DNA from: Pseudomonas protegens CHA0
Lineage (GTDB): Bacteria; Pseudomonadota; Gammaproteobacteria; Pseudomonadales; Pseudomonadaceae
NCBI RefSeq assembly: GCF_000397205.1
Contig: NC_021237.1
Coordinates: 2,419,001-2,483,000 of the forward strand
Direction of reading: 5' to 3'
Length of the DNA: 64,000 nucleotides
Under the pieces are notes generated by a model, which did no database searches, was not told the origin of the DNA, and saw only the letters and a program-made list of their open reading frames with translations. The position numbers and the translations under genes are program-made. How positions within the stretch are numbered: the stretch's first letter is position 1; every line of letters begins with the position of its first letter. This document shows, piece after piece, positions 622-30,785 of this stretch.

Positions 622-625
<4 letters not shown>
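2..625 (+). CDS. ofaB: C-terminal end of a lipopeptide NRPS (end of adenylation domain plus thiolation domain), partial
   Basis: This is the last roughly 207 codons of a nonribosomal peptide synthetase whose 5' part lies before the window; the reading frame is already open at base 2. The protein begins in the adenylation-domain core 8 region (GDLGRY, then GRNDDQVKIRG) and carries the A10 lysine motif (NGKL). It ends with a thiolation domain whose phosphopantetheine serine sits in DHFFELGGHSLLAV. There is no thioesterase, so the chain must pass to the next protein. The stop codon overlaps the GTG start of the following synthetase by 4 bases, a co-linear arrangement expected for successive assembly-line proteins. 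The name ofaB is inferred from the partner gene. The substrate cannot be read because the specificity pocket lies upstream. Confidence 0.85.
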
Positions 626-15327
<14,702 letters not shown>

Positions 15328-21995: not shown

Positions 21996-23210
21996 TTACC
22001 AGAATTTTTGATAGCGAAAACAGAGCTCTAGGAAGTAGTAGAGTGCTCCGAATGCAGTGTGTGCGAAAAACAAGATGACGCAACGTTTATATTTTTTTAC
22101 GTTGCTTATTGTTGTTGTAAAAGCTTCTTTGTTTTTTAGCAGGAATGCTGCAGAGAAAAGGAAAGTCAAGTATAGGCCAATCTGACCGCTCCACCAAAAA
22201 TTTCCGGCATACATCCGGTAGCCACTTTCAGAAAAGAAGTAAGTCAAAATTAACCCCATCAAGAGACAGAGCGATGCGAGAAGCAGTGCCTTGTCTTTGA
22301 TGAACTCTTTAGGGTAGTAGCAGAGTACAAGAAGTGGGAATGCGATAGATAGAATCAGCTTGATGAATAAGTATTTTGAGTAGTGGGCCATGCTTTCAAA
22401 AGGAAGAAATAAAACGTGGCTTTCCTCATTTGCGGTTTCTATTGAAAGGCTTTGGTAGAAGTAGGTGTGCAGAAACTGAAGACTGAGCACGAATACTGTC
22501 GGCAGGAAAAAAGCCCAGTAAATATATGCGCTTTTCAGGCTGCTTTTCAGTTGCTGGGTTGCGATGAGAAATAAAATCAGTGCTGGCAAAATGATAATAA
22601 GGAAATTTGGCTTTGATATTCCGCAGAAAAAAATTGAAATTGCCAGTAGCGTGCCTCTTGAGAGTGTGTTGCCTGAGGTTTCGGTGAAAGATTTTAATGT
22701 GTAGCAAAAAGCGATGAGGGCTAGTGGCTTGAGCAGGAGCATTGTTGGACTATGATAAATCGTAAGCCCCACATAGCCAAAATAGAAATGATGGTCAAAT
22801 ACCGCAAGGATCTGGAGGGGGCTGGCCACTAGTAAACATACTGACACAAGCGTGGCTGTTTTAGCTGAGGTGTACCGGCTGAGGACTTTATAGTTTAAGA
22901 TCGCCAGCAGGTAAATGGCGGAAACTATGATGATGGTGGAGGCTATGGCGTAATTGACACTTAGAATATTTTTAGTGAGGATCGTGAGTAGATGGTATAG
23001 CGGGTGCGGCAGCATGAGAGTGCCGTTATCTTCCATGTCGCTCGCCCATTTCAGGTGTGCAACATAGTCGCCGCCAATTGTTGAGAGCTTATATATAAGG
23101 GGGGTGAAGGTGATGAAAGTAAATGCAAGTAGTATGAAGTAGGCGCGAGTGTGGTGTTGGCGGTTTTTATCTGGTGCTGGATATGTTTCGCTTATGTTGT
23201 CGTCTGTCAT
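21996..23210 (-). CDS. Polytopic inner-membrane protein, candidate GtrC-type glycosyltransferase
   Basis: 404-residue protein with about ten hydrophobic helices and no recognised catalytic motif. A periplasmic loop after the first helix contains GGDYVAHLKWASDMEDNGTL, with acidic residues near the membrane as in GT-C fold transferases. It is first in the leftward operon with gtrB and gtrA, the place for the serotype-specific transferase that attaches the flipped sugar to surface polysaccharide. The family is very divergent, so the function is inferred from context. It is strongly AT-rich. Start 23210 is followed by a soluble 20-residue stretch before the first helix. Confidence 0.65.
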   Translation of the reverse strand: MTDDNISETYPAPDKNRQHHTRAYFILLAFTFITFTPLIYKLSTIGGDYVAHLKWASDMEDNGTLMLPHPLYHLLTILTKNILSVNYAIASTIIIVSAIYLLAILNYKVLSRYTSAKTATLVSVCLLVASPLQILAVFDHHFYFGYVGLTIYHSPTMLLLKPLALIAFCYTLKSFTETSGNTLSRGTLLAISIFFCGISKPNFLIIILPALILFLIATQQLKSSLKSAYIYWAFFLPTVFVLSLQFLHTYFYQSLSIETANEESHVLFLPFESMAHYSKYLFIKLILSIAFPLLVLCYYPKEFIKDKALLLASLCLLMGLILTYFFSESGYRMYAGNFWWSGQIGLYLTFLFSAAFLLKNKEAFTTTISNVKKYKRCVILFFAHTAFGALYYFLELCFRYQKFW

Positions 23211-23742: not shown

Positions 23743-24156
23743 TTACTGGCGCTTCTCGCAATTGACCATCCATGGCACACCAAAGCGGTCCACCAGCATG
23801 CCGAAGCGCTCGGCCCAGAAGGTGGCTTCCAGGGGCATCTGCACGTTGCCCTGTTCGGCCAGGGCGGCGAATACCCGTTCGGCTTCGGCGGCGTTGTCGA
23901 TGTTCAGCGAGATCGAACAGCCGTGGATGCCCAGGTAGGGCAGCTCAGGGGTGGTGTCCGAGCCCATCAGCACCTGGTCGCCGACGCTCAGGCGGGTGTG
24001 CATGATGCGTTCGTGACAGTCGGCAGAGATGTGATCACGGGCCGGGCTTTCACCGAAGGTCATCATCATTTCCAGGGTGCCGTTCAGGCATTGGGCATAG
24101 AAGGTGAAGGCGGCCTTGCAGGTGCCGTTGAACACCAGGTAGGGGTTGATTTTCAT
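23743..24156 (-). CDS. VOC/glyoxalase-fold protein, PhnB-like
   Basis: 137-residue protein of the PhnB/DUF1428-like branch of the vicinal oxygen chelate superfamily. Typical features are the opening KINPYLVFNGTCKAAFTFYA, a GESP segment, SVGDQVLMGSD and the closing FWAERFGMLVDRFGVPWMV. The role of this family is poorly known; members are annotated as 3-demethylubiquinone methyltransferase-like or metalloprotein. Start 24156 is supported by GGAG just upstream. A longer in-frame extension to 24267 has no such site and encodes unrelated sequence. It lies downstream of the radical SAM gene in the same direction, 176 bp away, and is probably a separate unit. Confidence 0.85.
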   Translation of the reverse strand: MKINPYLVFNGTCKAAFTFYAQCLNGTLEMMMTFGESPARDHISADCHERIMHTRLSVGDQVLMGSDTTPELPYLGIHGCSISLNIDNAAEAERVFAALAEQGNVQMPLEATFWAERFGMLVDRFGVPWMVNCEKRQ

Positions 24157-24291
24157 GCTGTGCTCCGGTCGCAGGTAACGGGCAGGCACGCGGGCCTGTG
24201 GACGAACTTCCATAGCAAAGCCGCTATCGGCCCTGCGCGGAGGTTTTTTTATAGATGGTTTTTCCATGCTCGCCCGTGGCGATATAACCGT

Positions 24292-24331: not shown

Positions 24332-25798
24332 TTACAGGCGCGGCTGCTCCTGGGGCGTGCCGAGCAACTGGTGCAGGGTGTTGATCAGCGCCTGCTGGCG
24401 CAGCCGGTCTTGCTGGTGCCGGGCTTCGGCGGCGGCGACATCGGCGTTGCAGTGCGGGCAGGTGCTTTCATGGGCGTGGATGTACTCCAGGCAATTGCGA
24501 CACAGGGCCAGGCGCGGCGGGATGCGGCCTTCCTCGGGCGACGCCTGGCCCTGGTTGACCCAGGCCAGCTTGATCACCTGGCCGCTGTCGTTGACGCTCG
24601 ATACCGCCTCGCCGGTGTCGATGCGTTCGGTGATCAGGTCGAAACGGCCCACCGAGAACGACGCCGGGCCGGCGTCTTCGAGCTTGACGATGCGTTCGCG
24701 CAGGCCCTTTTTCGCCAGGTCCAGGGTCCGGTAGTGGCAGTAGGGATTGTTCCCCGGCTTGCCCAGCAGCGAGTGCGAGGTCCAGGTGCACCCGCCGCGG
24801 CAGACATCGTTGTAGTAACAGGTGCGGCAGTAGCCCCACAGGTCGTCCACCGAGCGCAGGCGGCCGAAGTGGATGCCTTCGCTGTAGTGCCAGATGTCGT
24901 GCAGGCTCATGCTGCGCACGTTGCCACCGGAGAAACCCACGGTGGCCAGGGACGGGCAGCCCTTGACCGTGCCGTCGGCCTCCAGGGCCAGGACCGTCTG
25001 CCCGGCGGCGCATCCGCTCCAGTGCACGCGATCGTCGCCGAAGCCGCGCCACATGTGCTCGTAGGGGCCGTAGTAGCCGATGTTGTTGCCCACATTCATC
25101 AGCAGCCCGCGCTCGGCGCCTTCGCGGTACAGGCGCGCCAGCAGCGGCATCACCTCCAGCAACTGGTAGGGCTGCAGCAGCAGCTCGGGGTGATCCACCG
25201 CATTGCCCATGGCCACGGTCAGCTGGATCTGCCAGTGGCTGGCGCCGGCATCGATGATCAGCTCCATCAGGGCCGGCAGGTCGGGCAGGGTGGCGGCGCC
25301 GATCTGCGTGTTGACGCTGACCTTGAGCCCGGCCTGCTTGGCCCGGCGCAGGGTATCCAGGGCCTTGTCGAAGGAGCCGGGGACATTGCGCACCGCGTCA
25401 TGCAGCGGCGCCAGGCCATCTAGAGAGACGCCGACGCCATTGAGCCCGGCATCCACCGCGGCCTGCATCTTGGCCGGGGTCAGGTTGCGCCCGCCGGTCT
25501 GGATCGCCACGTACATGCCGTGGTCGTGGATGGCCTGGATCAGCCGCGTCCAGTCCTTGCGCAGATAGGCTTCGCCACCGATCAGGGTGACTTCCCGGGT
25601 GCCCAGGGCGGCGATCGAATCTATCACCGACAGGCATTCCTGGGTATTGAGTTCGCCCGGGCGCCGATGCCCGGCGCGGGAGCCGCAATGCAGGCACTTG
25701 AGGTCGCAGGCGAGGGTGATTTCCCAGACCACATGCACCGGGACAAAGCGCTTGAGGTCGGTTTCGCTGAGGTAGCGGGCGGGGAGACGGTCTGACAT
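24332..25798 (-). CDS. Radical SAM/SPASM peptide-modifying enzyme paired with GDL-type small proteins
   Basis: 488-residue radical SAM enzyme. C31, C35 and C38 form the CxxxCxxC cluster site (CDLKCLHC), and GGEAYLR is the SAM-binding GGE motif. A C-terminal SPASM region, rich in Cys at about residues 258-355 (SGCAAG, GCPS, YCRTCYYNDVCRGGC, YCHYR), should bind auxiliary clusters and is typical of RiPP maturases. Beyond it is an added CxxC...CxxC ribbon (LCRNCLEY, CPHCN, about 432-452) and a Gln-rich terminal helix. Start 25798 is set by AAGGAA at proper spacing. It is last in an operon after three small proteins sharing a C-terminal motif, which are its likely substrates or partners. I recall a computational family for GDL-motif-associated SPASM maturases but no characterised product. 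Confidence 0.88.
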   Translation of the reverse strand: MSDRLPARYLSETDLKRFVPVHVVWEITLACDLKCLHCGSRAGHRRPGELNTQECLSVIDSIAALGTREVTLIGGEAYLRKDWTRLIQAIHDHGMYVAIQTGGRNLTPAKMQAAVDAGLNGVGVSLDGLAPLHDAVRNVPGSFDKALDTLRRAKQAGLKVSVNTQIGAATLPDLPALMELIIDAGASHWQIQLTVAMGNAVDHPELLLQPYQLLEVMPLLARLYREGAERGLLMNVGNNIGYYGPYEHMWRGFGDDRVHWSGCAAGQTVLALEADGTVKGCPSLATVGFSGGNVRSMSLHDIWHYSEGIHFGRLRSVDDLWGYCRTCYYNDVCRGGCTWTSHSLLGKPGNNPYCHYRTLDLAKKGLRERIVKLEDAGPASFSVGRFDLITERIDTGEAVSSVNDSGQVIKLAWVNQGQASPEEGRIPPRLALCRNCLEYIHAHESTCPHCNADVAAAEARHQQDRLRQQALINTLHQLLGTPQEQPRL

Positions 25799-25930
25799 GA
25801 GAGTTCCTTGCGCACCCGGCGGTGCGCGGCACCAACCCATCGAAATAGGCGCGCCTTCCTTGTGTCGCAATGGCGCGGTCGTTTTGTGGCAGCCCCCGGG
25901 GCCGCGGCGGGCGGCCCCGGGTGCTGGTGG

Positions 25931-26539
25931 TCAGCGCTGTTCCAGGCGGCTGATTTCTGCCTGCAACTGCTGCACCGCCTGGGTCAGGTTGTCAGCGTTG
26001 GCCAGTTGCTGCTCGCCCTGGGCCACCAGTGCCTTGAGCCGCGCCAGGTCGCCGCTGGCCTGGGCCTGCTGCAGCGCCACGGCATACAGCGGGTGGCGCG
26101 CTTCGGCGGCCGGGCCGGCCTGGCTGGCGTAGTCCGCTGCCTGCGCCTGCTCCACCGGGGCCGGGCTCACGGCGGCGTGTTGCACCACGTGCCAGTGCCC
26201 CTGGAACTGGTACTTGTAGCTGGCGAAGCCGCTGGCCCAGTCCAGGCCGAGGATGCCCTGCAGGTGGAAGGTCTCGGCGATCTGGCTGGTGGGGCCGCTG
26301 GGGTTGCCGGCCAGGCTGAGAATGATGTGCCCCTCGCTGGAGGGGTCGAGCTTGACCTGGGAGTAGTCGCCCCACACGTCGGCATGGAACTGCACCGGTG
26401 GCGAGGTGCTCTGGGTCACGCGGGCAACGCCGCTGACGCGTTTCTTCGGGGTATCGACCAGCAGGTCGAGGGTCAGCACCGGCCCACCGATCACGGGGTT
26501 GGCGACGATGAGGCGGGTATGGAACAGTCCGATTGTCAT
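25931..26539 (-). CDS. DUF1842-like plus DUF1843-like protein, putative substrate or partner of the radical SAM enzyme (third)
   Basis: 202-residue protein. Residues 1-115 form a beta-rich domain (TLDLLVDTPKKRVSGVARVT, FHADVWGDY, SLAGNPSGP) that resembles DUF1842. A low-complexity Ala/Gln/Pro linker (about 118-146) leads to a C-terminal helical module: HPLYAVALQQAQASGDL, then ARLKALVAQGEQQL and a coiled-coil end finishing LEQR. The last 50 residues match the ends of the two upstream small proteins. No signal peptide and no cysteine is present. The start has a clear AAGGAG ribosome site. Function is unknown. The position directly before the radical SAM gene suggests it is modified by, or delivers a peptide to, that enzyme. 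Confidence 0.82.
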   Translation of the reverse strand: MTIGLFHTRLIVANPVIGGPVLTLDLLVDTPKKRVSGVARVTQSTSPPVQFHADVWGDYSQVKLDPSSEGHIILSLAGNPSGPTSQIAETFHLQGILGLDWASGFASYKYQFQGHWHVVQHAAVSPAPVEQAQAADYASQAGPAAEARHPLYAVALQQAQASGDLARLKALVAQGEQQLANADNLTQAVQQLQAEISRLEQR

Positions 26540-26590
26540 GCTGCAACTCCTTATCTTCTTGAAGACATCAGGTTCGATGGACGGCCGGCC

Positions 26591-27226
26591 TCAGCGCCGC
26601 TCCTGCTGGCTGATCTCGGCCTTGGCGGCCACCAGTGCGGTGCGGATCAGCGGCAGCTGTTCCAGTTGCTGGGTGGCGACCTTGTGCAGGCTCTTCATCT
26701 GCGCCAGGTCACCGCTGGCGATGGCACCGTGGATCGGCGCCCCGTACAGCGCCGAGATCGGCGGCAGCGGGTGGTTGGGCTGGCCGCGGTGCAGAGGGGC
26801 CGACAGGGTGCTGGACTGCACGGTTTCCTGCAGGTGGGCGGGCACCTGGTTGACCGTCACCCAGCTGTGGCCGTTGTAGTACTGATAGTTGGCCACGCCT
26901 TCCTTCCAGTCGTCGCTGACCACCAGGTGCAGCTTGAAGTTGATCACCGAGTTCGACCCCGGGCCGCCCTGGTTGCCCTGGGCCGTGATGAGGATCTTGC
27001 TGGTGCTGGGCGGCATGACGGTGAGGTAGGTGTACTGGCCCCAGACATCGCTGTGCAGGTCCAGGGGCGGGTTGACCGCCTGGGTGATGCTGGAAGTGCC
27101 GCGCACACTGTGTTCCGGGGTATAGGCCAGCAGGTTGAGGATCAGGGTGGGTGCGCCGGGTTGCGAGGTGCCGATGCGGTAGCTCAGGGGGAACAGGCCT
27201 TCGGCTTGCGAGTAGTTGCCGGACAT
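26591..27226 (-). CDS. DUF1842-like plus DUF1843-like protein, putative substrate or partner of the radical SAM enzyme (second)
   Basis: 211-residue paralogue of the next gene. The N-terminal domain shares the spaced pattern LxLLxxTP, TQxxxPP, HxDVWGxY and GNxGGPxS with it. The C-terminal module reads LYGAPIHGAIASGDL, then AQMKSLHKVATQQLEQL, and ends QERR. GGAGG stands 8 bases before the ATG at 27226, so that start is preferred to the ATG 15 bases upstream. It has no signal peptide and no cysteine. Spacing to the next gene is about 50 bp, so the operon is continuous. Tandem duplication inside this operon is evident. Confidence 0.82.
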   Translation of the reverse strand: MSGNYSQAEGLFPLSYRIGTSQPGAPTLILNLLAYTPEHSVRGTSSITQAVNPPLDLHSDVWGQYTYLTVMPPSTSKILITAQGNQGGPGSNSVINFKLHLVVSDDWKEGVANYQYYNGHSWVTVNQVPAHLQETVQSSTLSAPLHRGQPNHPLPPISALYGAPIHGAIASGDLAQMKSLHKVATQQLEQLPLIRTALVAAKAEISQQERR

Positions 27227-27262
27227 TTGCTTTGCCTCCATTCAATGACAGGGGAACCGCGA

Positions 27263-27451
27263 TCAGCGGCGTTCCAGGCGGGCGACTTCCTTGGCCAGCT
27301 GTTCGTAGGCGTTGTGCAGATCCTTGGGTTCGTTCCTGGCCGGATCGCGCTTGGCCAGCAGGGCTTTCATCTCCGGCAGCTTGCCTTCGCTGATGGCCGA
27401 CTGGATGGCGACTCCGTAGGGGGGGATCACATGTTGGGATGCATTGCTCAT
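27263..27451 (-). CDS. Small DUF1843-like protein, minimal form, putative radical SAM substrate (first)
   Basis: 62-residue protein made almost only of the C-terminal module found in its two downstream neighbours. It reads PPYGVAIQSAISEGKL, then PEMKALLAKR, and ends LERR. The GDL core of the others is GKL here. It lacks the beta-rich N-terminal domain, so it may be a stand-alone precursor or an inhibitor or chaperone of the others. A GGAAGG ribosome site lies 8-9 bases before the ATG. It is the first gene of the leftward operon and would be made in largest amount if expression falls along the message. No function is known. Confidence 0.8.
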   Translation of the reverse strand: MSNASQHVIPPYGVAIQSAISEGKLPEMKALLAKRDPARNEPKDLHNAYEQLAKEVARLERR

Positions 27452-27562
27452 GGCGTTTGCCTTCCGTGGGTGTGGATGGGGTGCTGCGCTACTCGGCAGC
27501 TTTTGCAGTTAAGCAGCGCGGGTGGAATTGGCAGGGTAATGGCACATTGATTTTGTGGGTTT

Positions 27563-27768: not shown

Positions 27769-28398
27769 TCAGTGCGCTCGGACCACCCCCAACTCCTCCA
27801 GCCGGCGCCGCGTCTCGGCCGCCGTCACATGATGAATCGCATGCCACCCCAGCGCCGTTGCGGCGACGATATTGGGCGCATGGTCGTCAATGAACACCAG
27901 TTCCTCGGGGGCCACCCCCGGCAAATGCGCACGAATGCGCCCCAGGGTCGTGTGATAGATCTCGGCATCCGGCTTGATCTGGCGCTCTTGCCCCGACACC
28001 ACGATGTCGCGAAAGCGCTGCAGAAACGGGTAATTGTCCCAGGCATAGGGAAAGGTTTCCCGGGACCAGTTGGTCAGCCCGAACAGGGGCACCTGCGCCT
28101 GGTGCAGCTCTTCCAGCAGGGCCACGCCCTGATCCAGTGGCCCCTTGAGCATTTCCGGCCAGCGCCCGTAATAGGCCTCGATCAAGGGGGCATGGTCGGG
28201 GTGCTCGGCCACCAGGCTGCGGGTCGCCTCGGCCAGGCTGCGGCCGGCGTCCTGCCGGGTATTCCAGGCCTGGGTGCAGATGGTGTCGAGGAACCACTGG
28301 CGGCGCTCATCGTCGGGGATCAGCTGGCGGTACAGGTGGTGCGGGCTCCAGTCGAACAGCACGCCACCAAAATCGAAAACCACGGCACGAATCGTCAT
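27769..28398 (-). CDS. HAD-superfamily hydrolase (YihX-like phosphatase)
   Basis: 209-residue HAD hydrolase. Motif I is VVFDFGGVLFDW (nucleophile aspartate in DFGG), motif II is GLTNW, motif III is the Lys in RQIKPDAEIY, and motif IV is VFIDDHAPNI. The helical cap after motif I is that of subclass I phosphatases such as YihX (sugar-phosphate phosphatase) and of the N-terminal domain of soluble epoxide hydrolase. The exact substrate cannot be told. The start at 28398 is supported by AAGGACG; an upstream in-frame extension to 28581 has no ribosome site and runs through the divergent promoter region. Confidence 0.9.
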   Translation of the reverse strand: MTIRAVVFDFGGVLFDWSPHHLYRQLIPDDERRQWFLDTICTQAWNTRQDAGRSLAEATRSLVAEHPDHAPLIEAYYGRWPEMLKGPLDQGVALLEELHQAQVPLFGLTNWSRETFPYAWDNYPFLQRFRDIVVSGQERQIKPDAEIYHTTLGRIRAHLPGVAPEELVFIDDHAPNIVAATALGWHAIHHVTAAETRRRLEELGVVRAH

Positions 28399-28561
28399 GA
28401 ACACGTCCTTTTGAGCGGTTATGGGCCAGGCGCCATCCTGCGACGCCCGGCAGCACAATGCAATTTGCCGCTGGCCGCTGGTCCGCTCGGCGGCACCCTG
28501 GCCACGAATCGTGATCCAACCCCTGTATCCGGCCTTTTCCAGGCTGGCACAGGAGCTGCCC

Positions 28562-28768
28562 ATGACTGCCAAGAACCCCACGGGGCCGCGCTCGTCCGAG
28601 CATGCCTCGAATCATCATGACCCGGGTTTCGACCCCGATTCGCCAGACCTGGCCGACCCCCAGGTAGACCCGGTAGGCCCGGCCAGGGCACCCCTGGACC
28701 GCCCTGAACCCGAGCACCGGCGCAAGCGCTCGCGGGCCTACGATCCCCTGGCCAACCTGAAGAAATGA
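28562..28768 (+). CDS. Small disordered hypothetical protein
   Basis: 68-residue, very hydrophilic protein rich in Asp, Pro, Arg and His, with a basic tail (HRRKRSRAYDPLANLKK). A GGAG site precedes the ATG. It is divergent from the HAD gene and 95 bp before the next small gene. I do not recognise a family; composition suggests intrinsic disorder. A longer in-frame start at 28421 is less likely because it lacks a ribosome site. Confidence 0.6.
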   Translation: MTAKNPTGPRSSEHASNHHDPGFDPDSPDLADPQVDPVGPARAPLDRPEPEHRRKRSRAYDPLANLKK

Positions 28769-29143: not shown

Positions 29144-29668
29144 TTACGGCTGCATGAAACTCAGCAGCGGGAGGATGAAGGCTGCTGCCAGGGCCAGTGC
29201 CCACAGGGTCTGCAGAAACAGCTCATCGGCGTTGTCGGCGGCGGGCCGCGGGGCGAGGCGGCGGCGCCAGTAGAAGTACAGGCTGCTGACCACGAACACA
29301 CAGGTGATGCCCATCATGTACTCCAGCTCCCACTTCTGGGGGCTGATGGCCAGGCTGCCGTCCTGGTCATCCGGGTAGTCGAGCCGCCACCAGGCGCCCA
29401 GCAGCAGCGGCACCAGCCCGGCCAGGAGCCAGGCCAGGCGCGCGCCGGGCATCCGGGTCAGCAGGGTCACGGCCAGGCCGATCAGGCACAGCACCCAGAC
29501 AAAGAGGTACAGCTGAAAGCCCATGGCCCCACCGAACAGCGTGCTGCTGACATCCCGCGGCTGCATCATCTGCACGTCGCACAGCAGCATCAGCGACAAG
29601 GGCGCGGCAACGACGATCCAGCACAGAGGGCGGTAGAGCCACAACCACAGGGTAAACAGGCGAGACAT
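29144..29668 (-). CDS. Conserved small integral membrane protein (paralogue of the next gene)
   Basis: 174-residue protein with about five transmembrane helices. It shares with the adjacent 200-residue gene the pattern LYxxLCWIxVAA, STLFGGAMGF/GTLFGGSMGF, GARLAW and WWRxxYPDDxDG. That alignment sets the start at 29668 rather than at the ATG 12 bases upstream. No catalytic motif is seen and function is unknown. It is last in a leftward set of three membrane-protein genes. Confidence 0.78.
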   Translation of the reverse strand: MSRLFTLWLWLYRPLCWIVVAAPLSLMLLCDVQMMQPRDVSSTLFGGAMGFQLYLFVWVLCLIGLAVTLLTRMPGARLAWLLAGLVPLLLGAWWRLDYPDDQDGSLAISPQKWELEYMMGITCVFVVSSLYFYWRRRLAPRPAADNADELFLQTLWALALAAAFILPLLSFMQP

Positions 29669-29718
29669 GGGCACACTCATCGAGGTTTGGTGAAGCAAGA
29701 AAGAGGCGGGGTTGACGG

Positions 29719-30321
29719 TCAGTCGACAATGACCCGGGTGCCAGGGCCCAGGCACAGGCTCAACTGTTCGCCGGCCCGGTTGAAGGCGCAGTACGGCAGG
29801 GGCGCCTTGCTGGCATTGACCAAGGGGGGGATGAAGAAGCCCCCCAGCAACACCGCCCATGCAATCCGCAACGACAGCTCACGGAGGGTGGCGGGGGCTC
29901 TCGGCTTGAGCCGCTGCCGGTGCAACAGGTAGATGCCGCTGTAGACCAGGGCGAAACCGAAGACCATCACATAGTCCAGCTCCCGGGCCTGGATGCTGAA
30001 GATCAGGTTGCCGTCGAAATCGTCCGGGTAGTTGATCCGCCACCACAGGCCCAGCAGCAACTGCACCAGCCCACCGATGATCCAGGCCAGGCGGGCGCCG
30101 GGCACCCGGGTCAGCACGGCCAGGCCCAGGCCGATGACGCTGAAGGCCCAGCCGCCCAGGTACAGCATGAAACCCATGGAGCCGCCGAACAGCGTGCCGC
30201 CGACTTCCCGGGGGACGATCAGGTGCAGGTTGCAACGGATCATGGTGGCCAATTGTGCGGCCACGGCGATCCAGCACAGGAGGTAGTAGAGCCGGGACCA
30301 GAAGGTGTGCAGGGGCGACAT
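29719..30321 (-). CDS. Conserved small integral membrane protein (paralogue with C-terminal extension)
   Basis: 200-residue paralogue of the preceding entry, clearly a tandem duplicate. It carries the same helices and the FGGSMGFMLYLGGW and WWRINYPDDFDGN motifs. It continues about 27 residues past the end of its partner with a hydrophilic tail containing two cysteines (CAFN, LCLGPG). The long upstream in-frame extension overlaps the next gene and is rejected. Function is unknown. Confidence 0.78.
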   Translation of the reverse strand: MSPLHTFWSRLYYLLCWIAVAAQLATMIRCNLHLIVPREVGGTLFGGSMGFMLYLGGWAFSVIGLGLAVLTRVPGARLAWIIGGLVQLLLGLWWRINYPDDFDGNLIFSIQARELDYVMVFGFALVYSGIYLLHRQRLKPRAPATLRELSLRIAWAVLLGGFFIPPLVNASKAPLPYCAFNRAGEQLSLCLGPGTRVIVD

Positions 30322-30371: not shown

Positions 30372-30785
30372 TCAAACCAACAGCAAACCGCAGGCAACCG
30401 CGAACAGCACCAGGGCGATGCTGATGCCCGCCAGGGGAATGCGAAACCAGTAACGAATCGCCAGCACCCACAGGCTGGCGAGAAACCCCAGGCCGATCAG
30501 CAGCAAGCCACGGGCCTCCAGCAGCAGGGCCGGGTGCAGCCAGGCGAGGTAGCCATAGACCAGGCCGAACAGCATGGCGCCCAGGCTGTGGCTGGCGTTG
30601 AAGCCGACCCAGGCCCGCCACAGGCTGGTCTGGCGGGTGATCATCGGCGACACCTGGCGCATGCGTTCGGCCAGGGCCGGGTCACGGGGCTGGAATTTGT
30701 CGGTGGCGAAGGTGTAGATCAGGTGCAGGGTGCCGAGCAGCAGCACGATGGCTGAGCTGGCGATGATCAGGGCGGGGGCCAACAC
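30372..30785 (-). CDS. Conserved four-helix membrane protein, LIC_13387-like
   Basis: 137-residue membrane protein with four helices. It has a cytoplasmic or loop segment KFQPRDPALAERMRQVSPM and the motif WVGFNASHSLGAMLFGLVYG seen in small conserved proteins of proteobacteria and spirochaetes. No function is known to me. It heads the leftward group that includes the two paralogous membrane proteins, with 50-bp spacings, so co-transcription is likely. Confidence 0.75.
   Translation of the reverse strand: MLAPALIIASSAIVLLLGTLHLIYTFATDKFQPRDPALAERMRQVSPMITRQTSLWRAWVGFNASHSLGAMLFGLVYGYLAWLHPALLLEARGLLLIGLGFLASLWVLAIRYWFRIPLAGISIALVLFAVACGLLLV

What the first reader, a model, noticed from the sequence alone, without database searches (positions are those of the whole stretch)
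24332..27451. A radical SAM/SPASM enzyme in an operon with three GDL-domain proteins, a probable uncharacterised modification system
Seen: a leftward operon of a 62-, a 211- and a 202-residue protein, then a 488-residue radical SAM protein with CxxxCxxC, GGE and a SPASM-type cysteine array. All three small proteins end in the same module, pattern YGxxIxxAIxSGDLxxMKxL through a helical end to ExR. Known: SPASM enzymes mostly modify ribosomal peptides encoded beside them. Inferred: the GDL module is the recognised or modified part. There is no transporter or protease gene, so the product may stay in the cell or be a modified protein rather than a released peptide.
Basis: partly seen in the sequence, partly recalled or inferred. 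Interest (0 to 1): 0.85.

Follow-up and report, generated by a model that had tools for sequence, protein, structure and literature searches.

The report
Likely tyrosine-excising protein splicing operon
This four-gene bacterial operon probably cuts part of a tyrosine out of the backbone of its own small proteins and leaves a reactive unnatural residue, a rare kind of protein editing; the chemistry is inferred here, not measured.

Summary
In detail: a leftward operon encodes three small proteins sharing a C-terminal module (DUF1843; two fused to DUF1842) and a radical SAM/SPASM enzyme. NCBI already names the enzyme family (TIGR03913, 'GDL motif peptide-associated maturase'), so it is catalogued but without a known reaction. 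Enzyme and module co-occur exactly in a genus sample (14 of 149 genomes have both, 135 neither). The new part is what the enzyme most resembles: TIGR04103. A Nostoc member, 47% identical, sits beside a Nif11-leader precursor ending ALYGLPPELF, which holds the X-Tyr-Gly motif of PlpX spliceases; [quoted passage not shown] In DUF1843 a Tyr followed by Gly or Ala is in 61 of 61 modules (my seeds favour it). Related enzymes sit beside unrelated proteins with xYG motifs. Best reading: the Tyr 11 residues before the GDL turn is the target, giving about -135 Da per site. The enzyme's zinc ribbon also occurs on YG-bearing proteins beside ribbon-less relatives (25 of 34 loci; 0 of 20 beside ribbon-bearing ones), suggesting a transferable docking module. 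No chemistry was measured; Scott et al. 2022 (not held) may already cover this clade.

The parts
27263..27451 (-). 62-aa DUF1843-only protein (PPYGVAIQSAISEGKLPEMKAL...LERR), first gene of the operon
   Evidence: (PF08898, 39 bits, cut-off 23.3)
26591..27226 (-). 211-aa protein: DUF1842 beta-barrel, disordered linker, C-terminal DUF1843 module
   Evidence: (AlphaFold2: barrel 11-132, low confidence 136-166, helices 162-171 and 174-210 at pLDDT 50-60)
25931..26539 (-). 202-aa DUF1842 plus DUF1843 protein; its motif is LYA, not LYG
   Evidence: (homologous to PDB 8t0b)
24332..25798 (-). 488-aa radical SAM/SPASM enzyme, TIGR03913, predicted splicease-like
   Evidence: (1055 bits, cut-off 592)
27413..27421 (-). 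Predicted target site P11-Y12-G13 in the 62-aa protein
   Evidence: inference
26741..26749 (-). Predicted target site L160-Y161-G162 in the 211-aa protein
   Evidence: inference
26081..26089 (-). Predicted target site L151-Y152-A153 in the 202-aa protein
   Evidence: inference
25685..25708 (-). Radical SAM [4Fe-4S] motif CDLKCLHC (residues 31-38)
24737..25012 (-). SPASM domain cysteines (residues 263-354)
24449..24502 (-). C-terminal zinc-ribbon motif CRNCLEYIHAHESTCPHC (residues 433-450), proposed substrate-docking module
   Evidence: function inferred

Best explanation
The operon is a protein-backbone-editing system. The radical SAM/SPASM enzyme binds the two-helix DUF1843 module of three co-encoded proteins, probably with help from its own C-terminal zinc ribbon. 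It excises a tyramine unit from the X-Tyr-(Gly/Ala) site at the start of the module, in the flexible linker just before helix 1, and rejoins the chain. [quoted passage not shown] The products are intracellular proteins (DUF1842 barrel with an edited tail, or the bare 62-aa module) rather than a released peptide. Shown: gene content, enzyme family, co-occurrence, Tyr conservation, kinship to the TIGR04103 (splicease-type) enzymes and the xYG motif in relatives' partners. Inferred: the reaction, the site, the ribbon's role and the cellular purpose.
For: Family kinship: after TIGR03913, TIGR04103 is by far the next best model (436 bits; third best 166). Three intermediate enzymes, L078-L080, score 490-507 for both models. 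PlpX is placed in IPR026482 in PMC11002830 (passages read); that IPR026482 equals TIGR04103 is recalled. Independent check: a Nostoc plasmid enzyme over the TIGR04103 cut-off (853 against 725) is 47% identical to ours over 378 residues and lies next to a Nif11-leader precursor ending GRGSIALYGLPPELF. Published natural PlpXY sites are MYG and LYG, in cores such as the PlpA2-derived PIRPxYGLPI (PMC10533398, passages read); DUF1843 modules elsewhere read LYGVPI. Target residue: Tyr in 61 of 61 dereplicated modules, then Gly in 36 and Ala in 25; it is the only invariant residue of the C-terminal module in 33 two-domain proteins. Substrate swap: partners of related enzymes are otherwise unlike proteins with (often repeated) xYG, e.g. 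four MYGMPAP in L080. Outside the enzymes, 19 of 24 zinc-ribbon ORFs carry [ACILMPV]YGx[PAV], against 51 of 2376 six-frame background ORFs (Fisher 1.9e-26). Tree: the 24-row GDL clade (support 100/96) is sister (85/89) to a 16-row clade in which 9 rows were labelled as having ribbon-bearing xYG partners. Co-occurrence: 14 of 149, the same genomes for both families. Module specificity: 3 of 3 DUF1842 genes outside the enzyme cluster lack the module. Active-site shell: an NNIGYxGPxE-type motif is in 50 of 54 representative enzymes and absent from the one outgroup.
Against: No reaction was measured, here or in any passage I read, for TIGR03913 or for the Myxococcota relatives; their splicing is itself inferred. 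The window enzyme is below the TIGR04103 cut-off (436 against 725), and so are all the relatives searched (0 of 20 genomes over it; 0 of 95). The residue after Tyr is Ala in 25 of 61 modules and in one of the three window proteins, while published spliceases are described by X-Tyr-Gly. In the Sphingomonas-type relatives (L073, L075-L077) the site reads YYRP. One annotated Azospirillum module starts MYMATV. Two DUF1842 homologues with degenerate tails, P0211 and P0212, lack the Tyr. X is Pro in the 62-aa protein. No PlpY/RRE-like gene was seen in the operon. L128, L136 and L144 gave no convincing xYG partner. PlpXY itself is choosy about context: in FtsZ only 2 of the listed tag insertions were accepted, both GYG, and the two LYG tags were not. 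My module HMM seeds required Y[GA], which inflates the Tyr count.
Confidence: 0.6

Rival explanations
1. The enzyme acts on the same conserved Tyr but with other SPASM chemistry, for example a crosslink, oxidative decarboxylation or epimerisation; tyramine excision is confined to the TIGR04103 side of the family.
For: The GDL clade is separate (100/96) and below the TIGR04103 cut-off. Ala follows the Tyr in 25 of 61 modules. The nearest solved structures by fold are PqqE, SkfB and SuiB, which do other chemistry (recalled).
Against: Much of the catalytic core is conserved between the GDL enzyme and the Nostoc TIGR04103 enzyme (47% identity). Intermediates score equally for both models. The xYG motif is shared by unlike partners on both sides of the tree.
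Confidence: 0.2
2. The enzyme modifies another residue of the module (Met, Lys or Asp of the GDLxxMKxL stretch); the Tyr is only for recognition.
For: Gly (56 of 61), Asp (45 of 61) and Lys (53 of 61) of that stretch are also well conserved.
Against: Only Tyr is invariant in that set. The xYG partners of related enzymes show no GDL module. The GD lies at a helix turn in the low-confidence model, which fits a structural role.
Confidence: 0.08
3. DUF1843 is a self-assembly domain of a shell-like complex and the enzyme has an unrelated role.
For: Paralogous repeats in operons first suggested this (Beeby et al. 2009, as cited in PMC10994174; passages and discussion section read).
Against: The authors saw a likely monomer and no higher-order assembly. 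Strict co-occurrence with the enzyme. DUF1842 genes outside the enzyme cluster lack the module.
Confidence: 0.05
4. The modified module is cut off and released as a peptide (a conventional RiPP), with protease and export supplied from elsewhere in the genome.
For: In crystallisation trays the homologue was cut, giving 4-5 kDa and 17-19 kDa fragments. The 62-aa protein is peptide-sized.
Against: No transporter or protease family was hit among the operon and flanking proteins scanned, though three neighbours (21996-23210, 29144-29860, 30372-30785) hit no family at all. Two of three substrates are fused to a folded barrel.
Confidence: 0.1

Closest known systems
[quoted passage not shown]
   Same: The window operon is a member: the curated cut-offs are passed.
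   Different: No difference found; the family has no assigned reaction in the model names or in the passages read of the five papers found for DUF1842/DUF1843.
PlpX-type splicease / TIGR04103 nif11-class peptide maturase 3
   Same: Core sequence (47% identity to a Nostoc member), SPASM array, NNIGYxGPxE-type motif, and an xY(G/A) site in the partner proteins.
   Different: Below the TIGR04103 cut-off; substrates are DUF1843 modules on folded proteins, not Nif11/NHLP leader peptides; no RRE-like partner seen; an extra zinc ribbon on the enzyme; Ala often replaces Gly after the Tyr.
Myxococcota xYG systems (L079, L080, L113, L120, L122 and others)
   Same: Homologous enzyme, xYG motifs and a zinc ribbon that the enzyme-ribbon profile detects.
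   Different: Here the ribbon is on the enzyme; there it is on the xYG protein, with a lipoprotein-like segment and often repeated xYG. Their reaction is also unmeasured here.
PDB 8t0b/8t1m/8t1n (DUF1842 protein; passages and discussion section of PMC10994174 read)
   Same: Same two-domain protein family as the 202- and 211-aa proteins.
   Different: Only the barrel was seen; the DUF1843 tail was unresolved, the protein was expressed on its own in E. coli in the passages read, and 'radical SAM' occurs 0 times in the text.

Membership tests
TIGR03913 GDL maturase | Score over the curated cut-off (591.75 bits) | tested here: met
   1055.4 bits over positions 1-477 of 477
TIGR03913 GDL maturase | Co-encoded proteins with the Y-X(10)-GDL module | tested here: met
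   Three proteins over the PF08898 cut-off; GDL exact in two, GKL in one
Radical SAM / SPASM | CxxxCxxC and the seven-Cys SPASM pattern | tested here: met
   (the SPASM pattern itself is recalled); Pfam PF04055 and PF13186 over the cut-offs
PlpX-type splicease (TIGR04103) | Score over the curated cut-off (725 bits) | tested here: not met
   436.3 bits; the Nostoc enzyme reaches 853.1
PlpX-type splicease (TIGR04103) | X-Tyr-Gly site in the co-encoded substrate | tested here: inconclusive
   Tyr in all three; Gly in two, Ala in one; across modules Gly 36 and Ala 25 of 61
PlpX-type splicease (TIGR04103) | Partner RRE-like protein (PlpY) | tested here: not met
   No further small gene was seen within the operon and no RRE-type Pfam hit in six scanned operon and flanking proteins. 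Weak test: the Nostoc 71-aa protein in the PlpY position hit no family either.
PlpX-type splicease (TIGR04103) | Excision of a tyramine equivalent (C8H9NO, about -135.07 Da) | not testable with these tools
   Needs expression and mass spectrometry
RiPP precursor | Leader removed and product released | not tested
   No protease or transporter family hit in the operon and flanking proteins scanned; nothing else was examined

The most novel reading that the evidence does not exclude
Intracellular folded proteins, not peptides, are natural end products of tyramine splicing in proteobacteria. The specificity device is not an RRE but a transferable zinc ribbon that evolution has placed on the enzyme's C-terminus, on its N-terminus, as a separate small protein, or on the substrate itself. 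The modified DUF1842 barrels, whose relatives are strongly induced in stationary phase or by quorum sensing in other genera, would be ketoamide-armed proteins, for example covalent protease inhibitors or carbonyl-reactive binders.
Probability: 0.35. Interest if true: 0.8.

Novelty: new variant of a known kind. Interest (0 to 1): 0.6.

Why it matters
It gives a named but functionless family (TIGR03913 with DUF1842/DUF1843) a concrete, cheaply testable reaction: one site per protein, one mass (about -135.07 Da) and one reactive handle (an alpha-ketoamide). If true, backbone editing with beta-residues is a normal step in making intracellular proteins in soil bacteria, and the splice tool-kit used for protein labelling gains an enzyme with a built-in docking module. 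The zinc-ribbon swap would be a new answer to how radical SAM maturases find their substrates without an RRE.

Tried and rejected
A 'loss of 2 Da' crosslink as the default expectation: set aside because the nearest enzyme family is the splicease-type family. Shell or self-assembly domain: no support in the structural paper. GDL as the chemical target: the xYG partners of related enzymes show no GDL module. DUF1842 barrel as a clue to function: Foldseek finds only its own family with confidence (8t0b/8t1m); lipocalin, streptavidin and GID4 hits have E above 0.05. Promoter and terminator scan: 0 sigma-70-like sites, 3 terminator-like sites against 2.7 in shuffles. Order-level co-occurrence sample: uninformative, only the own genome has either family over the cut-off (1 of 145 each; at E 0.001 the enzyme model rings in 127 of 145 genomes and in all 14 controls, because any SPASM enzyme matches). 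DUF1843 HMM on the ten loci it missed: replaced by direct reading of upstream ORFs. Scott et al. 2022 (Chem), cited as the wide splicease survey in the reviews read, is not held, so whether it covers TIGR03913 is unknown; PMC10533398 speaks of 27 other characterized and 939 predicted splicease systems. The first version of the motif script read a wrong row name and returned empty results for the window part (exit status 1); it was rerun correctly. A first orphan-DUF1842 script picked wrong frames and was redone by frame length.
Full report
OBSERVATION. The operon is as described. Four leftward ORFs of 62, 211, 202 and 488 aa occupy 24332-27451; the 211- and 488-aa starts are chosen to fit homologue lengths (longest readings 216 and 512 aa). 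The enzyme carries CX3CX2C, GGE and a full seven-Cys SPASM pattern, and also a C-terminal CX2C-X10-CX2C zinc-ribbon motif. Pfam finds DUF1843 in all three small proteins and DUF1842 in two. In each pair of modules none of 2000 shuffles reached the observed score.

WHAT IS ALREADY KNOWN. NCBIfam TIGR03913 is named for this very association ('GDL motif peptide-associated', 1055 bits against a cut-off of 592), and many listed database entries carry the name 'Y-X(10)_GDL-associated'. A search for DUF1842 or DUF1843 found five papers; I read passages of all five and the discussion section of PMC10994174. They report: a barrel structure for DUF1842, with the DUF1843 tail unresolved and the protein prone to proteolysis (PMC10994174); quorum-sensing induction of a DUF1843/DUF1842/DUF1842 cluster with a co-expressed TIGR03913-type gene in Chromobacterium subtsugae (PMC12114271), and of a DUF1842 gene by added acyl-homoserine lactones (PMC10197875); strong induction in Burkholderia thailandensis stationary phase (PMC12322963); and a rise with iron of a DUF1842 protein in C. 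violaceum (PMC4216352). None of the passages assigns a reaction. A search for splicease terms (71 papers hold a term, 40 were listed) shows none of these five among the 40.

CO-OCCURRENCE. In 149 genomes of the genus, 14 have TIGR03913 over the cut-off. The same 14 have DUF1843 over the cut-off, three copies each on the enzyme's contig at neighbouring coordinates; 135 have neither over the cut-off. Two of those 135 had one sub-threshold DUF1843 hit each. In a 145-genome order sample only the own genome scores over the cut-off for either family. Around 80 enzyme loci (the best 80 of 159 confirmed), 70 have a DUF1843 module by my HMM. In 22 relatives' genomes chosen because they hold the enzyme, 18 have DUF1843, 40 hits in all, each genome's hits in one cluster; four (behind L070, L073, L076, L078) have none. 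In nine genomes, 17 of 20 DUF1842 hits lie in the enzyme's cluster; the three on other contigs end without the DUF1843 module. So the module, not the barrel, travels with the enzyme.

THE ENZYME'S RELATIVES. The second-best model for the window enzyme is TIGR04103 (436 bits); the third is 166. Enzymes L078-L080 score 490-507 for both models. PMC11002830 (passages read) places PlpX in IPR026482, which I recall to be the InterPro entry of TIGR04103. To avoid leaning on recall I looked for a real member. A Nostoc plasmid enzyme passes the TIGR04103 cut-off (853 bits), is 47% identical to ours, and is preceded by a Nif11-leader precursor (TIGR03798) ending IALYGLPPELF. A 71-aa gene follows it; that it stands where plp clusters carry plpY is recalled, and the protein hits no family. 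PlpXY excises tyramine at X-Tyr-Gly; natural sites are MYG and LYG; the loss is C8H9NO, printed as -135.0757 Da (PMC10533398, passages read; I compute about 135.07). The same passages show context dependence: of the FtsZ tag insertions listed, two GYG forms were accepted and the LYG forms were not. Across the genomes (20; 95, one phylum), relatives score well for TIGR04103 in 20 and 33 genomes but in none over its cut-off, so those enzymes are uncharacterised kin, not proven spliceases. Products of spliceases are described as protease inhibitors (PMC10373908, section read; PMC11117315, passages read).

THE SUBSTRATES. Of 61 dereplicated DUF1843 modules, Tyr is present in 61, followed by Gly (36) or Ala (25); the next best columns are Gly of GDL (56) and an Ala, a Lys and a Leu (53 each). 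The seeds demanded Y[GA], so exceptions are under-counted: P0211 and P0212 have no Tyr, Sphingomonas types read YYRP, and one Azospirillum protein begins MYMATV. In 33 two-domain proteins the Tyr is the only invariant residue of the C-terminal module. In the AlphaFold2 model (mean pLDDT 71.6; 50-60 over the module) it sits at the end of a disordered linker, directly before two helices; GD is the turn between them. Related enzymes have other partners: L070 LYGVFI and MYGVVL; L074 three tandem proteins with LYGPP, IYGMPM and LYGIVW; L079 and L080 ribbon proteins with repeated LYGGPP or MYGMPAP. In a second set (57 loci of mixed phyla, L084-L140, 47 with a recognisable enzyme) 32 have an [LMPVI]YG-bearing ORF somewhere in the roughly 4-kb stretch; a few of these look accidental and no background was computed for that count.

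THE ZINC RIBBON. Of 131 enzymes recovered from 143 sources (12 lacked the search motif), 54 represent the set below 85% identity. Twenty carry a C-terminal ribbon. A profile of these 20 ribbons was run on all 7452 six-frame ORFs of the 54 loci. Outside the enzymes it finds 24 ORFs at E below 0.01; 21 contain YG (background 272 of 2376) and 19 contain [ACILMPV]YGx[PAV] (background 51 of 2376; Fisher 1.9e-26). The background is six-frame ORFs of 90-300 aa, mostly not genes, and the loci are related, so the P value is only a guide. The three without YG are a separate ribbon ORF just after the Sphingomonas enzyme (L073) and ribbons in another frame at the enzyme's 3' end (L070, L072). Ribbon proteins that contain YG occur beside 0 of 20 ribbon-bearing enzymes and 25 of 34 others (Fisher 5e-8, not corrected for relatedness; any residue before YG was allowed). 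The nine others are L063 (short contig), L070, L072, L073, L128, L133, L136, L141 (Nif11 type) and L144 (ribbon at the enzyme's N-terminus). The same module on enzyme, substrate or alone is the classic pattern of two parts that work together; I infer docking.

TREE. Of 55 rows, the 24-row clade containing the window enzyme (100/96) is sister (85/89) to a 16-row clade; 9 of the 16 were labelled as having ribbon-bearing xYG partners, and four more (L097, L117, L124, L130) have a ribbon protein with YG. Other xYG types and the Nif11-type enzyme lie outside. The outgroup branch is very long, so the root and the place of the Nif11 enzyme are unsure. Parsimony favours xYG chemistry before the GDL clade arose.

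STRUCTURE. The enzyme model (mean pLDDT 85) is nearest to PqqE, SkfB and SuiB by fold. By sequence only seven solved chains match at E below 0.001, led by SkfB and PqqE, so no splicease template was found.

VERDICT. The system is a catalogued member of TIGR03913. It most likely works like a splicease, but I do not file it as a TIGR04103 member because the cut-off is not met. The splicease reading of DUF1843, the exact target Tyr and the ribbon swap are what this work adds. I could not read Scott et al. 2022, whose title includes 'peptides and proteins' and which may already include this clade; this lowers the novelty score.

Noticed in passing
window 622-15327 (+): A single 4901-aa non-ribosomal peptide synthetase with four condensation, adenylation and carrier domain matches, a docking domain and two thioesterase matches; long minus-strand ORFs inside it look like shadow ORFs (the two tested, 2506-5391 and 5428-10218, hit no Pfam family).
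   Followed up: partly
window 27461-27468 (-): CACGGAAG, an RsmA/RsmE-like binding sequence, lies 17 nt before the start of the 62-aa gene; the consensus is recalled, and it would fit stationary-phase control.
   Followed up: no
L127, L132, L134, L137, L139: Ribbon proteins beside these Myxococcota enzymes have the site as CYG, where the Cys is at what looks like a lipobox, so the predicted edit would sit next to the lipid anchor.
   Followed up: no
L070 and L072, 3' end of the enzyme ORF: The zinc ribbon is encoded in another frame overlapping the end of the enzyme ORF; contig error or separate ORF.
   Followed up: no
L143 (Aureibacter tunicatorum plasmid) 2610-6938: The DUF1843/enzyme cluster lies between a gene annotated as a RimK-type ligase and a SAM-dependent methyltransferase, possible further tailoring.
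   Followed up: no
L144 (Tropicibacter oceani plasmid): An enzyme with an N-terminal zinc ribbon in a larger cluster with other radical SAM genes and two peptidase-annotated genes; no clear xYG partner found.
   Followed up: partly
window 23743-24168 (-) and 27769-28581 (-): A YjdN-like VOC protein follows the enzyme and a HAD-type hydrolase precedes the operon; no evidence that they belong to it.
   Followed up: partly
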